Origin: a virus
IMG/VR virus record: IMGVR_UViG_3300027749_000049
Location: 1 to 64,000 of that record
Reading direction: 5' to 3' (one strand)
DNA length: 64,000 nucleotides
Shown: piece after piece, positions 14,077 to 32,642 of the stretch
How positions within the stretch are numbered: position 1 is the first letter of the stretch
Layout: every line of letters begins with the position of its first letter
The notes under the pieces: generated by a model
Told to the model about the DNA's origin: nothing
The model's database searches: none
What the model saw: only the letters and a program-made list of their open reading frames with translations
Position numbers and translations under genes: made by a program

Positions 14077-14832
14077 TTAAGTATTTGCACGGTTTTGATC
14101 AGCCCAAGTAGTCTTAGTTAATTTATCACCATTTGGCCCTTTACGATTAACTTCAAATCTTTCAATGACATTTGAACTCTTACGTTTAGAGGTTTTTTCA
14201 AAACTGGGAAAGTAAGTTTCTACATCAATTGACAAATTTATATTTAATTTATTATTGTCAGTCATTGAGAACTTATAGGACTTATCAACTGTTTCATTTG
14301 CTGGAAATTGAAATTGAGCAGGAATTCTGACTCCGTGATATTGAAAATACATTACCCGGTTTGAATAAAAAATATGTAGCATATTTTCAGCAATCTTAAA
14401 TGCTTTATTTAAGTTATCACAAATAATTTTAATATCAAATTTAATTGACATTGGAAAAGAAAATAGCTGAGCTGAATAGCCAGTTAGGATATTTTCATCA
14501 TTTTCTCCTCTTTCAGGTTCAGTAAAACTACCCCTAACAAACTTATTTGTAATATCAGACGGTTTAACTTGGAAGCTTGACAGAGTTACAATTCCTCTTG
14601 GAATAATATCATAGGTGCCTTCTGCGGCTGGAATGCGACAGTTATCCGGCAGTCCAATATAAAAATCCTTTAAGAAGCCTTCATCTGTTCCATAATTATA
14701 AAGAAACGGAACCTTAAAAGTTTCATTATGATCATTTCGTGCAATCGTAATCTCCATTTCTCCATTTAACAAATCAAGCAAGGCAATTGTTAAATTTCTT
14801 AGAAAAATATCGTCGGTGTTTAATGTTTTCAT
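14077..14832 (-). CDS. Tail sheath stabiliser/terminator, T4 gp15-like
   Basis: The 251-residue protein follows the T4 gp15 plan: an N-terminal helix (RNLTIALLDLLNGEMEIT), the strand FKVPFLYNY, a central block (DIIPRGIVTLSSFQ), then SFPMSIKFDIKIICDNLNKA and an ILMLHIF-like helix, and a late IDVETYFPSF strand. gp15 caps the sheath and tube after polymerisation. No single motif is diagnostic, so the match is by residue pattern. Tandem ATAAATAA boxes stand directly upstream. Confidence 0.55.
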   Translation of the reverse strand: MKTLNTDDIFLRNLTIALLDLLNGEMEITIARNDHNETFKVPFLYNYGTDEGFLKDFYIGLPDNCRIPAAEGTYDIIPRGIVTLSSFQVKPSDITNKFVRGSFTEPERGENDENILTGYSAQLFSFPMSIKFDIKIICDNLNKAFKIAENMLHIFYSNRVMYFQYHGVRIPAQFQFPANETVDKSYKFSMTDNNKLNINLSIDVETYFPSFEKTSKRKSSNVIERFEVNRKGPNGDKLTKTTWADQNRANT

Positions 14833-14837
14833 CTGGT

Positions 14838-14849
14838 TTATTTATTTAT
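14838..14849 (-). promoter_or_regulatory. Overlapping late-type promoter boxes
   Basis: Minus-strand ATAAATAAATAA ends about 5 bases before the ATG of the gp15-like gene at 14832. Confidence 0.5.
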
Positions 14850-14883
14850 GCCCAGACTCAACTCTTAGAAAATAAAAAAAAGG

Positions 14884-15537
14884 TTAATTAGTTGGACTCT
14901 TCCTACCTAGGACATATCCGATTGTTAGATATGACTCAACTGCTGACTTGCTAACTTTTATTGCACCAATAGTTGGATGATAGACCCATTTTGTTCCAAA
15001 TTGGCTATTGTTTTCTCCTAATTGACTAATTGAATTCGCTAGTCCTATTTTTGATTTAGTTTCAACATTATGAGATTTACCGGTCCAATCGTAAGTTTTT
15101 TGCCAGTTAAGATGAGTTCCAGCAGCTTTAGCGTCAGTATGATACTTAGTCATGCGCTCGCTAGCTAATCTTGATTTAGTAGGGTTGTTTGATAAACCGC
15201 CGGCTGCTGAACACTTGAGTTGATGTTCAATTGAAATAAACCCATGCCAGCCTTCTCCGCCCTTAACTAAATTCATGCACATAGGATCAGATAATAGTGA
15301 TTCATTTACTAACTCTCTTTCTCGATTAGCTAGAGATTTTCTATCTGGTAAAAATTCAAGTATTTCCCTAGCGTGATTTTCTTTTCCGTGGTAATTTATA
15401 GAATGCCACAACTTTTTTCCACTACCTAAATATGAATCTTCTATTTTTGGAGTAGAATGCATGCCAATATAATAACGACCGGTTATTAAGCATGTTGTTT
15501 TGTAGATAAAGTGGTATTTATGTTTTGATTGAGCCAT
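14884..15537 (-). CDS. GIY-YIG homing endonuclease (Seg/Mob-like, free-standing)
   Basis: The N-terminal 95 residues form a GIY-YIG nuclease: FIYKTTCLITGRYYIGMHS, the R of LANRERELV, and the conserved NLVKGGEGW. A NUMOD3-type DNA-binding helix follows (GKSHNVETKSKIGLANS), then a C-terminal FGTKWVYH repeat common in phage homing enzymes. No intron is visible around it, so it appears free-standing. Its start codon abuts a perfect 15-bp inverted repeat whose loop holds a late promoter box, an arrangement like that controlling T4 I-TevI. The tmRNA gene lies immediately upstream on the same strand. Confidence 0.9.
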   Translation of the reverse strand: MAQSKHKYHFIYKTTCLITGRYYIGMHSTPKIEDSYLGSGKKLWHSINYHGKENHAREILEFLPDRKSLANRERELVNESLLSDPMCMNLVKGGEGWHGFISIEHQLKCSAAGGLSNNPTKSRLASERMTKYHTDAKAAGTHLNWQKTYDWTGKSHNVETKSKIGLANSISQLGENNSQFGTKWVYHPTIGAIKVSKSAVESYLTIGYVLGRKSPTN

Positions 15538-15538
15538 A

Positions 15539-15583
15539 TTGCAAACAAGTCTTTGATTTTATTTATCTAAGACTTGTTTGCAA
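15539..15583 (-). promoter_or_regulatory. Perfect 15-bp inverted repeat with late promoter in its loop
   Basis: Arms 15539-15553 and 15569-15583 are perfectly complementary and flank a 15-base loop. Read on the minus strand, the loop holds AGATAAATAAAATCA, a late-type box, and the downstream arm ends one base before the homing-endonuclease ATG. Read-through RNA from the tmRNA side would fold and hide the start. RNA begun at the late box would lack the first arm. It could also serve as a tmRNA 3' processing or termination hairpin. Confidence 0.75.
15559..15566 (-). promoter_or_regulatory. Late-type promoter box inside hairpin loop
   Basis: Minus-strand ATAAATAA in the loop of the inverted repeat, about 21 bases before the homing-endonuclease ATG. 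Confidence 0.6.
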
Positions 15584-15590
15584 AAGGTTG

Positions 15591-15959
15591 TGGTGTGGAG
15601 ATAGGCGGAATCGAACCGCCGTCCAAAAAACCTCTAATTAAACTTTCATTTACACGCTTAGTCCATTTTTCTAATTGGACGAAATATCTTATTCTTTAAC
15701 GACTTAAAGCTAAAGTCAGTAACGGTTCGACTTGGCCGCTACGCCATGCTGGTTTTGCAACTTTGGTTAGTCAAGCAGTTGCCGCTTGGTCACTTATGCA
15801 GCTAAAAGCTCTTCAGTAACAGGAGTGTTAACGCCTTGGTTAACTAGGCTCCAGAAAGTAGTGTTGCCACTTATTGTTTGTAATACATTTTAACGAGTCT
15901 TAGCATCATCCTCGGCGTGCAAGCGTAACCGATAATCTTTGTCAAAACCGGTTATCCCC
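15591..15959 (-). ncRNA. ssrA: tmRNA (transfer-messenger RNA)
   Basis: The 3' end shows the tmRNA T-arm (GGACGGCGGTTCGATTCCGCC) and the acceptor strand UAUCUCC, which pairs with the 5' end GGGGAUA (one G-U pair). The 5' D-like part GGUUUUGACAAAG follows. The likely tag frame starts at GGC after CAAUAAGU and runs 24 codons, beginning GNTTFW and ending EELLAA before UAA. A Gly start and an LAA-type end fit Bacteroidota tmRNA tags. A CCA is encoded three bases beyond the expected discriminator base, so the exact mature 3' end is uncertain. tmRNA rescues stalled ribosomes and tags their products; a phage copy presumably serves the infected cell. Confidence 0.92.
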
Positions 15960-15970
15960 ATATAATAGTT

Positions 15971-15976
15971 ATTATA
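15971..15976 (-). promoter_or_regulatory. TATAAT -10 box for tmRNA
   Basis: Minus-strand GGTATAATAAC places transcription start near 15964, a few bases before the mature tmRNA 5' end at 15959. Confidence 0.6.
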
Positions 15977-15982
15977 CCTAAT

Positions 15983-15990
15983 TATTTATA
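15983..15990 (-). promoter_or_regulatory. TATAAATA late-type box upstream of tmRNA
   Basis: A perfect match to the T4 late consensus on the minus strand, just upstream of the TATAAT box. It suggests that tmRNA is made both early and late. Confidence 0.5.
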
Positions 15991-21740: not shown

Positions 21741-22367
21741 ATGAGCGCATACGATCTACTGAATAAGCAATTAAATGACGAAATGCAAAGTCTTGCTGAA
21801 CTTATCAAAACCGGCAAATATAAAGAAAAAGATCGAAATCGGCTAGCCTCAATCATGTACCCAAAATTAAAATATTTTATTTGGAAATTTTTTAATGACG
21901 CAGATGAAACTGATGAGGTATTACACAATACCCTTTTTAAAATATTTAAAGGAATTGCATCGTATAGTGATAGTTATCGATTTACTACTTGGATTTATAC
22001 AATTGCAAAAAATGAGGCATTACTTCATCAACATAAATTAAAGCAGCAATATGCAATAAGTTTAGATAATTTAACTAAACCATTAAATATACCAGATAAT
22101 TCAGCAGAGACCTTTGAAAAGGAAGTATATTTTGATGATTTATATAATATGACTAAGTTTGAAATTAATGCCTTACCTGAATGTATTGAAAAGTCAATAT
22201 TAATCGATAAAGAATTACATCATATGCGAGGTAATGAAATTGCTGAGAAATATGAAATGAATCTAAATACGGTTAAAACTAAAATCAGAAAAGCTCGTAA
22301 AATGTTAAAAGAGGCCGTGTTGACTAAAAATCCTCACATGGTTGATAAACTTGGAGAATATTTTTAA
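21741..22367 (+). CDS. ECF-like RNA polymerase sigma factor, candidate late sigma
   Basis: The 208-residue protein has sigma region 2 (ADETDEVLHNTLFKIFKGI then YRFTTWIYTIAKNEAL) and a region 4 helix-turn-helix (MRGNEIAEKYEMNLNTVKTKIRKARKML), with no region 1 or 3. This is the ECF layout. About twenty ATAAATAA boxes in the window resemble the T4 late promoter read by gp55, itself a minimal sigma. This gene, in the terminase region, is the natural candidate to read them; that link is inference. Confidence 0.88.
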   Translation: MSAYDLLNKQLNDEMQSLAELIKTGKYKEKDRNRLASIMYPKLKYFIWKFFNDADETDEVLHNTLFKIFKGIASYSDSYRFTTWIYTIAKNEALLHQHKLKQQYAISLDNLTKPLNIPDNSAETFEKEVYFDDLYNMTKFEINALPECIEKSILIDKELHHMRGNEIAEKYEMNLNTVKTKIRKARKMLKEAVLTKNPHMVDKLGEYF

Positions 22368-31026: not shown

Positions 31027-31034
31027 ATAAATAA
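31027..31034 (+). promoter_or_regulatory. Late-type promoter box 1 of 3
   Basis: First of three tandem ATAAATAA boxes (23 and 26 bases apart) upstream of the gene at 31104. Confidence 0.55.
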
Positions 31035-31049
31035 CTGTACAAGTACAAG

Positions 31050-31057
31050 ATAAATAA
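31050..31057 (+). promoter_or_regulatory. Late-type promoter box 2 of 3
   Basis: Second of three tandem ATAAATAA boxes upstream of the gene at 31104. Confidence 0.55.
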
Positions 31058-31075
31058 ATTTAGCAACAAAAGCTG

Positions 31076-31083
31076 ATAAATAA
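31076..31083 (+). promoter_or_regulatory. Late-type promoter box 3 of 3
   Basis: Third tandem box, 20 bases before the ATG at 31104, the usual spacing in this genome. Confidence 0.65.
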
Positions 31084-31103: not shown

Positions 31104-32642
31104 ATGAACGGTCTCATACAAGAACTAACTAACGAGCTCAAAAATAATTCGAGCATAAGCTCTAATATTGCTGCAAAGGTGGTATTAGAATCAATTAATA
31201 ACTCATTACTTTTGGGAGTTTCGCCTGATCAAATTTTAGAAAATTCTCTAAACACATTAGAGCAATTTGCTAATGAACTAGTAAACGAAAATCTTAAAGA
31301 AGTAGTTGCTAAATTCAAAAAGATGGCAGACAAGCCAACTAAGCGTCTTCAAAATATGGCTAGCGAAGCTGGTCTTTCTTTAAAACTTAAAGTCTTAAAG
31401 GAAAGTGAAATTTATGCAGATCCGGTAGTTAAACATACGGTTGCTAGATTAGAAGAAGCAGTTGCATCCATGCCAGAATACAGAGCTTTAAACTTCTTTT
31501 TTAATGCGTTATCTAAATTCTCTTACGATAAGACAGTTTCTACAATTCTAGAATCTCTTATTACTTATGTAAATGAAAACTCAGTGAAACTTGAAATCTT
31601 AAATTCAATTTATGAAATGCGAGTTACTGGTGCAATTCTTTACAAAGATGCATGTGCTCTATTAGAAGAAGCCCTACTTGAAAATATTGCAACCTCTGAT
31701 TCATTAAAAATGAAATTACGTTCTCATGCTCAATTACCGGTAGTTAATCAGTTAATTAATAAAATTAGCATGTTAGAATCAAAAACAACTGGTACCTTTA
31801 ATCTAGGAATTGGTAACAGCGATTCACAGGTAAAACCAATTATTGCACCTTTCTATAAAATTAGCGAAAGCGATGCAATTGTTTTTGTTGATAATAAATT
31901 CATTAAAGTATCAGAAGATTCTGATCCATCTCAAATGACAGCCGAAGAAGTTAAGGAATTCCCTGAGTTCTTTGAAACTTGCGAAGCTTTTGCAACTTTA
32001 AATTTTAAAGAGCACAGTACTGAGTTAGTATCTACTTGCAGAAATTTAACTATCGCATTTGGTATTAATGAAAATGGTACACTAAATTTAAAAATCAATA
32101 ATTCAATTATTGAAAATATTAACAATATTAAATTGTCTGAAATTTTCTTAATGGAAACTATTGAGACTCGTAATGCTCTTTCTAAATTGTTTAATAATTT
32201 AGATTTAGTGGTTAATCTTGAATTTGGAAAAACCATTATTAATGAAAGACTTGGAAGAGATTCAATTGTTCTTAATTTAGACGAAAATATTTTTGTATTT
32301 GAAAAACTTGGAGAAACTAGAATTGTTAAGAAAATGAAAGGTTTAACTTTCCATAATTATGTTATGGAGAACTTTAAATATGATATTAGCGAAATGTACT
32401 CAATTCAATTAGAAGAAAGAGAAGCTAATATTAAAGCCTTTGATCTTGAAAAAACCACAATTGAAGAAAATCTTGCTAAATTAGAAGCATCAATTTCTCA
32501 AATTGAAGAAGCTCTATCTGATAAAGGTCTTACTGCTGAGTATCAAGAAAAATTAACTGAACTTAAAGTATCTATCGAGAAAAACGTAAATGCTCTTAAG
32601 AGTCAGTATATTGTAGTTGATCAATCCAAAAAAAAAGCATAA
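31104..32642 (+). CDS. Abundant-type late protein with C-terminal coiled coil (512 aa)
   Basis: Three tandem late boxes upstream suggest strong late expression. The first 230 residues are helical (LIQELTNELKNN, ENLKEVVAKFKKMADKPTKR). The middle is mixed, and the last 90 residues form a coiled coil (EENLAKLEASISQIEEAL). It could be a head core, scaffold or inner-virion protein; no motif decides. The gene ends in nine A residues (32628-32636) just before the stop. A -1 slip there would fuse it to the next open frame, adding about 98 residues. Confidence 0.6.
   Translation: MNGLIQELTNELKNNSSISSNIAAKVVLESINNSLLLGVSPDQILENSLNTLEQFANELVNENLKEVVAKFKKMADKPTKRLQNMASEAGLSLKLKVLKESEIYADPVVKHTVARLEEAVASMPEYRALNFFFNALSKFSYDKTVSTILESLITYVNENSVKLEILNSIYEMRVTGAILYKDACALLEEALLENIATSDSLKMKLRSHAQLPVVNQLINKISMLESKTTGTFNLGIGNSDSQVKPIIAPFYKISESDAIVFVDNKFIKVSEDSDPSQMTAEEVKEFPEFFETCEAFATLNFKEHSTELVSTCRNLTIAFGINENGTLNLKINNSIIENINNIKLSEIFLMETIETRNALSKLFNNLDLVVNLEFGKTIINERLGRDSIVLNLDENIFVFEKLGETRIVKKMKGLTFHNYVMENFKYDISEMYSIQLEEREANIKAFDLEKTTIEENLAKLEASISQIEEALSDKGLTAEYQEKLTELKVSIEKNVNALKSQYIVVDQSKKKA

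What the first reader, a model, noticed from the sequence alone, without database searches (positions are those of the whole stretch)
15539..15583. Late promoter hidden in the loop of a start-codon-blocking hairpin upstream of a homing endonuclease
A perfect 15-bp inverted repeat abuts the ATG of the GIY-YIG gene and carries AGATAAATAA in its loop. Early read-through RNA from the tmRNA side would fold over the start; late RNA begun in the loop would not. T4 I-TevI uses this logic (early hairpin, internal late promoter). Finding it in a distant Bacteroidota phage would be convergent or long-conserved control. It may double as a tmRNA 3' terminator.
Basis: partly seen in the sequence, partly recalled or inferred. 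Interest (0 to 1): 0.78.

Follow-up and report, generated by a model that had tools for sequence, protein, structure and literature searches.

The report
Late promoter inside start-codon-blocking hairpin
A T4-like phage carries a SegB-type selfish DNA-cutting gene behind its tmRNA gene; the gene's start is folded shut in read-through RNA but should be open in RNA begun at the phage's own late promoter, which lies in the hairpin loop, and about 90% of some 100 related genes behind tRNA or tmRNA genes in other phages show the same design.

Summary
On the minus strand a perfect 15-bp inverted repeat (15539-15553 / 15569-15583) ends one base before the ATG of a 217-aa GIY-YIG homing endonuclease, and its loop holds GATAAATA. 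It is the only perfect repeat of 14 bp or more (loop up to 30) in 64 kb.

ATAAATAA is this phage's late-type promoter: 19 of 24 copies lie just upstream of a same-strand gene start (4% expected). About 100 non-redundant relatives, nearly all just downstream of a tRNA or tmRNA gene, show the same design. A significant start-codon hairpin occurs in about 90%, against 8% of control genes. The arms co-vary (0 of 5000 swaps as good). The loop motif matches each phage group's own promoter dialect. The predicted late start falls at the beginning of the 3' arm.

In near relatives without the gene, the slot holds the tmRNA's intrinsic terminator, so the insertion replaced it. This copy has no U-tract, so the terminator idea is not supported here; two relatives do combine both.

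The mechanism is known from T4 I-TevI and segB. This is a new member of that kind, plus a broader rule. Start sites and translation are untested; host unknown.

The parts
14884..15537 (-). SegB-type GIY-YIG homing endonuclease gene (217 aa, intact)
   Evidence: phrog_314 E=6e-30, T4-type PP01 SegB about 37% identity
15569..15583 (-). 5' arm of the start-blocking hairpin (absent from RNA begun in the loop)
15554..15568 (-). hairpin loop, AGATAAATAAAATCA
15560..15567 (-). late-type promoter motif GATAAATA in the loop; by the T4 rule (motif -13 to -6) transcription would start near 15554
   Evidence: start position inferred, not measured
15539..15553 (-). 3' arm, pairs with the 5' arm and ends one base before the ATG
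15593..15959 (-). tmRNA gene, source of read-through RNA into the endonuclease gene
15608..15616 (-). T-arm of the tmRNA; + strand GAATCGAAC matches the published T6 SegB cleavage motif RAWTSGAAC
   Evidence: motif from PMC13096335
15983..15990 (-). TATAAATA late-type motif upstream of the tmRNA, conserved in nearly all relatives
15971..15976 (-). TATAAT (host sigma-like -10) upstream of the tmRNA, conserved in most relatives
14868..14884 (-). CCTTTTTTTTATTTT: right-hand remnant of the tmRNA terminator that is intact in gene-free relatives
14838..14849 (-). late-type motif of the downstream tail-sheath-stabiliser gene (gp15)
21741..22367 (+). phage-encoded RNA polymerase sigma factor, candidate reader of the motif
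   Evidence: phrog_1740 E=2e-13; Sigma70_r2 over cut-off

Best explanation
The element is a two-state translational switch in front of a SegB-type homing endonuclease gene. RNA that reads through from the tmRNA contains both arms, folds a stem of at least 15 bp that ends at the start codon, and is not translated. RNA begun at the phage's late promoter, which lies in the loop, starts at about the first base of the 3' arm, lacks the 5' arm and is translated. The endonuclease is therefore made only late, when replicating phage DNA is available for homing, whatever the activity of the tmRNA promoters. The cassette took the place of the tmRNA's intrinsic terminator when it inserted. Shown by sequence: the structure, the promoter motif, the family-wide conservation and the replaced terminator. 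Inferred: start sites, timing, translation block and homing.
For: Motif: ATAAATAA occurs 24 times in the window, 19 within 90 nt upstream of a same-strand gene start against 4% expected (p about 1e-22). Three phage sigma factors are encoded. Family: of 100 non-redundant relatives, 74 have a tRNA or tmRNA ending 24-64 nt upstream (median 51), and most of the rest show a tRNA T-loop. Start hairpin with z < -2 in 84-100% of elements per motif class against 8% of 200 control gene starts (p = 5e-37). Own 5' region pairs with own start region far better than swapped ones (0 of 5000 within-class permutations). The loop motif matches the motif upstream of other genes in the same phage groups: ATAAATA:ATATTTA is 17:0 in class A and 11:35 in class B (p = 2e-8); class C has ATATATA[AG] in 8 of 40 against 1 of 228 (p = 1e-6). 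The predicted late RNA lowers the energy needed to open the start from about 18.5 to 1-3 kcal/mol; in L001, which has the window's sequence, from 23.6 to 2.5. The predicted start falls within about 5 nt of the 3' arm (40 of 74 ideal, 16 expected, p = 2e-9). T4-type segB (PP01) falls in the same set (z = -8.2). A published review gives the same logic for I-TevI and segB (PMC2988022).
Against: No RNA or protein data exist for this phage. The start site is set by the T4 rule. Motif classes follow the endonuclease tree in large part (13 changes), so element and phage may simply have diverged together. Two relatives (L076, L078) have a U-run after the hairpin, so a termination role is possible in some members. 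One same-slot member (L069) lies behind an intact terminator and has only a weak hairpin without the motif; this fits the model but was not predicted beforehand.
Confidence: 0.78

Rival explanations
1. The hairpin is mainly the tmRNA's transcription terminator or 3'-end protecting structure, and its position at the ATG is a by-product of insertion into the terminator.
For: The slot holds a canonical terminator in 15 of 17 gene-free relatives. L076 and L078 have the start hairpin followed by T6. L071 and L072 have a hairpin with nearly the same arms as the window but no endonuclease gene.
Against: The window copy has no U-tract and no terminator-like site was found. Across about 100 elements only two have four or more T before the ATG. 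Arms often pair with codons 1-5 and co-vary with the start region, and a promoter motif in the loop is not needed for termination.
Confidence: 0.12
2. The repeat is a DNA-level feature: a homing or operator site of the endonuclease (as shown for I-TevI autorepression) or a mobile-element end, rather than an RNA switch.
For: I-TevI binds an operator over its own late promoter (PMC2988022). A T-run follows most of the tRNA genes (56 of 66), as a conserved left boundary would.
Against: Arm sequence differs completely between related elements while complementarity is kept, which fits pairing and not a fixed binding site. The hairpin often extends into the coding region. Autorepression could act in addition.
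Confidence: 0.05
3. The AT-rich loop motif is a chance match and the gene is expressed only by read-through.
For: GATAAATA alone is only mildly in excess in an AT-rich window (10 against 6.5).
Against: Copies concentrate upstream of gene starts. The loop motif follows the phage group's own motif, in the same orientation.
Confidence: 0.04

Closest known systems
T4/T6 SegB (free-standing GIY-YIG homing endonuclease in the tRNA region)
   Same: Same enzyme family by sequence; starts shortly after a tRNA gene; hairpin over the start codon with a late-promoter motif (PMC2988022 names segB among such cases).
   Different: Here the neighbour is a tmRNA, the motif lies wholly in the loop and not in the arm, the stem stops just before the ATG, and the insertion replaced a terminator.
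T4 I-TevI (intron-encoded GIY-YIG endonuclease)
   Same: Early RNA folds over the start; a late promoter inside the hairpin region gives RNA without the 5' strand (PMC2988022, PMC3014915).
   Different: I-TevI sits in a group I intron; no intron was found here (Rfam). Not the closest relative.
T4 genes e and soc; Aeh1 mobE
   Same: Inhibitory RNA structures at the start codon; for gene e they form only on longer read-through transcripts (PMC3014915, PMC2988022).
   Different: e and soc are not homing endonucleases and mobE is HNH-type.
SegB-tRNA association reported in 2026 (PMC13096335)
   Same: SegB homologues lie near tRNA genes of many isotypes in GenBank phages; the T6 enzyme cuts in tRNA genes and prefers RAWTSGAAC.
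   Different: That paper used a 1-kb window and its text holds no mention of hairpin, late promoter or tmRNA. The narrow spacing and the switch are added here.

Membership tests
SegB-type GIY-YIG homing endonucleases | GIY-YIG domain with conserved motif residues | tested here: met
   I11-Y12, Y23-x-G25, E61 and N89 invariant in 27 members; phrog_314 homing endonuclease E=6e-30. Pfam SegE_GIY-YIG only below cut-off.
SegB-type GIY-YIG homing endonucleases | Position next to a tRNA-like gene | tested here: met
   57 nt after the tmRNA 3' end; family median 51 nt
SegB-type GIY-YIG homing endonucleases | Cleaves an allele lacking the gene and is inherited preferentially | not testable with these tools
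   Gene-free alleles exist (L034, L045) and the T6 motif is present in the tmRNA T-arm; no assay
I-TevI/segB type early-hairpin, late-promoter control | Stable RNA structure over the start region in read-through RNA | tested here: met
   z=-6.4; predicted start-region unpaired probability 0.13 in the same sequence (L001)
I-TevI/segB type early-hairpin, late-promoter control | Late promoter inside the hairpin whose RNA lacks the 5' strand | tested here: met
   By sequence only: motif enrichment and geometry; start site not mapped
I-TevI/segB type early-hairpin, late-promoter control | Translation low from early RNA, high from late RNA | not testable with these tools
   Needs reporter or infection data
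Intrinsic transcription terminator | GC-rich stem followed by a U-tract | tested here: not met
   0 sites in the region; no T-run after the stem

The most novel reading that the evidence does not exclude
SegB-type genes are a mobile cassette that homes through the universal T-arm of tRNA and tmRNA genes, displaces the RNA's 3' terminator, and carries a hairpin switch whose loop is re-tuned to the late-promoter dialect of each phage lineage it enters. The published T6 cleavage motif RAWTSGAAC is the reverse complement of the T-arm consensus GTTCSAWTY, which would explain insertion behind any tRNA isotype or tmRNA.
Probability: 0.45. Interest if true: 0.68.

Novelty: new member of a known kind. 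Interest (0 to 1): 0.52.

Why it matters
It extends a control circuit known from a handful of T4 genes to about 100 elements, nearly all in uncultivated phages, and shows that the hairpin is kept by selection while its sequence turns over. Because the loop carries the phage's own late promoter, these cassettes can be used to read off late-promoter motifs of phages that have never been grown. It also suggests why selfish endonucleases gather behind tRNA and tmRNA genes.

Tried and rejected
Nucleotide search of annotated phages for the locus gave no usable hit. The T4 consensus TATAAATA itself is not in excess in the window (4 found, 10 expected); the working motif is ATAAATAA. A MAFFT alignment of divergent hairpins was not usable for pair counts, so a swap test was used instead. 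A profile search against solved structures found nothing. A canonical terminator for the window copy was tested and rejected. Simple convergence with I-TevI was rejected because segB and about 100 relatives share the trait. Assigning a Bacteroidota host was left open: the nearest annotated terminases, from Sphingomonas PAU and from Tenacibaculum and Flavobacterium phages, are only 30-33% identical.

Full report
The observation. The window is part of a 128-kb T4-like phage record (terminase, gp6-like baseplate and tail-sheath-stabiliser genes). On the minus strand a tmRNA (15959-15593) is followed by a 217-aa GIY-YIG homing endonuclease gene (15537-14884) and then by the sheath-stabiliser gene gp15 (14832-14077). 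Between tmRNA and endonuclease lies a perfect 15-bp inverted repeat that ends one base before the ATG and carries AGATAAATAAAATCA as its loop. It folds at -23.7 kcal/mol (z = -6.4) and is the only perfect repeat of its length in the window.

Is the loop motif a promoter? GATAAATA alone is not rare in this AT-rich sequence, and the exact T4 consensus TATAAATA is not in excess. But ATAAATAA is placed very unevenly: 19 of 24 copies lie within 90 nt upstream of a same-strand gene start, where 4% are expected, often about 20 nt before the ATG. A further copy precedes the tmRNA. The phage encodes at least three sigma factors, one in the window. I take the motif to be the late promoter of this phage; that it is read late is inferred from T4.

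Relatives in the same slot. Searches of IMG/VR with gp15, gp6 and the endonuclease gave 170 loci. A tmRNA between gp6 and gp15 is conserved in most of those that span the region. In relatives without the endonuclease, including L034 and L045 whose gp15 is 92-94% identical, the tmRNA is followed by a canonical terminator; 15 of 17 distinct gene-free loci have one. In the window the right half of that terminator (CCTTTTTTTTATTTT) survives behind the endonuclease gene and the left half is gone. The insertion thus swapped a terminator for a start hairpin. Other insertions in this slot (L047, L052, L055, L076, L078) have start hairpins of other arm sequences with a promoter-like motif in the loop. 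L069, whose endonuclease lies behind an intact terminator, has only a weak hairpin and no motif. The same-slot proteins of window, L047, L052 and L076 form a supported clade (98/95), so complementarity has been kept while arm sequence was replaced. L071 and L072 have nearly the window's arms but no endonuclease; whether they are donors or relics is open.

Relatives elsewhere. Widening the search gave 100 non-redundant family members. Seventy-four have a tRNA or tmRNA ending 24-64 nt upstream (median 51, IQR 46-57), of many isotypes, and most of the others show a tRNA T-loop that ARAGORN did not call. The region from the tRNA end to codon 4 folds significantly (z < -2) in 84-100% of members per motif class, against 8% of 200 control gene starts from the same loci (Mann-Whitney p = 5e-37). 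In many the stem includes the ATG and codons 2-5. A swap test, which does not depend on alignment, shows that each 5' region pairs with its own start region far better than with those of other elements of its class (sum -1098 against -724, sd 26, 0 of 5000). Single compensatory changes are visible by eye in three copies on L002: C-G, U-A and U-G at one position.

Promoter dialects. The loops fall into three main classes: ATAAATA (A), TATTTAT (B) and GATATATA-like (C). For other genes of the same loci, the matching motif is the enriched one and in the same orientation. After dereplication the counts are A 17 ATAAATA and 0 ATATTTA; B 11 and 35; C 8 of 40 with ATATATA[AG] against 1 of 228 (p = 2e-8 and 1e-6). 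This is the strongest evidence that the loop is a promoter and not a chance AT-rich loop. The classes cluster on the protein tree but need at least 13 changes, some of which reflect crude class calls. I therefore do not claim how often a cassette has been re-tuned as opposed to diverging with its phage.

Geometry. Placing the start by the T4 rule (motif at -13 to -6), it falls at the beginning of the 3' arm (median offset -1, +1 and +4 nt in A, B and C; 40 of 74 remove nearly the whole 5' arm and keep the 3' arm, 16 expected). In silico the cost of opening the start region drops from about 18.5 to 1-3 kcal/mol; in L001, which has the window's sequence, from 23.6 to 2.5.

How it most likely works. 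The tmRNA has both TATAAT and a late-type motif upstream, conserved in most relatives, so read-through RNA into the endonuclease gene is expected early and late. All of it contains both arms and should be blocked. Only RNA begun in the loop should be translatable. Endonuclease synthesis is thereby tied to the late promoter.

Comparison with the known. The review by Edgell, Gibb and Belfort describes this logic for I-TevI and reports similar arrangements for I-TevII, I-TevIII, segB and Aeh1 mobE (PMC2988022; also PMC3014915). The window enzyme is of SegB type, and phage PP01 segB, fetched here, fits the family pattern. Association of SegB with tRNAs was published in 2026 (PMC13096335), without mention of hairpins, late promoters or tmRNA. 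What is added here: the tmRNA slot, replacement of the terminator, the narrow spacing, covariation across about 100 elements, and the dialect match. The T6 SegB motif RAWTSGAAC is the reverse complement of a T-arm consensus; the window's tmRNA T-arm has an exact match at 15608-15616. That paper's text does not use the terms T-loop, T-arm or acceptor. This link is my inference.

Limits. No transcript or protein data. Start sites, timing, host and homing are inferred. Class C rests on few upstream regions. Family members share ancestry, so counts are not fully independent, although near-identical copies were removed.

Noticed in passing
15971-15990 (-): The tmRNA has a TATAAT 11 nt and a TATAAATA late-type motif about 23 nt upstream; the pair is conserved in most relatives, as if the tmRNA were made both early and late.
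   Followed up: partly
15593-15959 (-) and L033-L170: A phage-encoded tmRNA between gp6-like and gp15 genes is conserved across many related contigs, with variable tag peptides (for example GNTTFWSLVNQGVNTPVTEELLAA, GNTSIWDVINGFVGAPATEVEYAVAA).
   Followed up: partly
L071:3611-3660, L072:4216-4265: tmRNA followed by a hairpin with nearly the window's arms (GCAAACAAG/CTTGTTTGC) but no endonuclease gene and no U-tract: possible relic or donor of the cassette.
   Followed up: partly
L069:4204-4360: Endonuclease gene inserted after a gp15 5' fragment behind an intact tmRNA terminator; it lacks a strong start hairpin and the loop motif.
   Followed up: partly
31027-31083 (+): Three ATAAATAA late-type motifs in tandem, 23-26 nt apart, before the gene at 31104.
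   Followed up: no
14832-14855 (-): gp15 has a small 5-bp hairpin (TCTGG/CCAGA) just before its ATG with the late motif in the loop; kept in L034 and L045, not in L046.
   Followed up: no
21741-22367 (+); record 72042-72254 and 74756-74935: Three sigma-factor-like proteins in one phage record.
   Followed up: partly
32939, 40422, 43557, 48452 (+): GTATAAT lies just upstream of several gene starts, a possible second (early or middle) promoter class.
   Followed up: no
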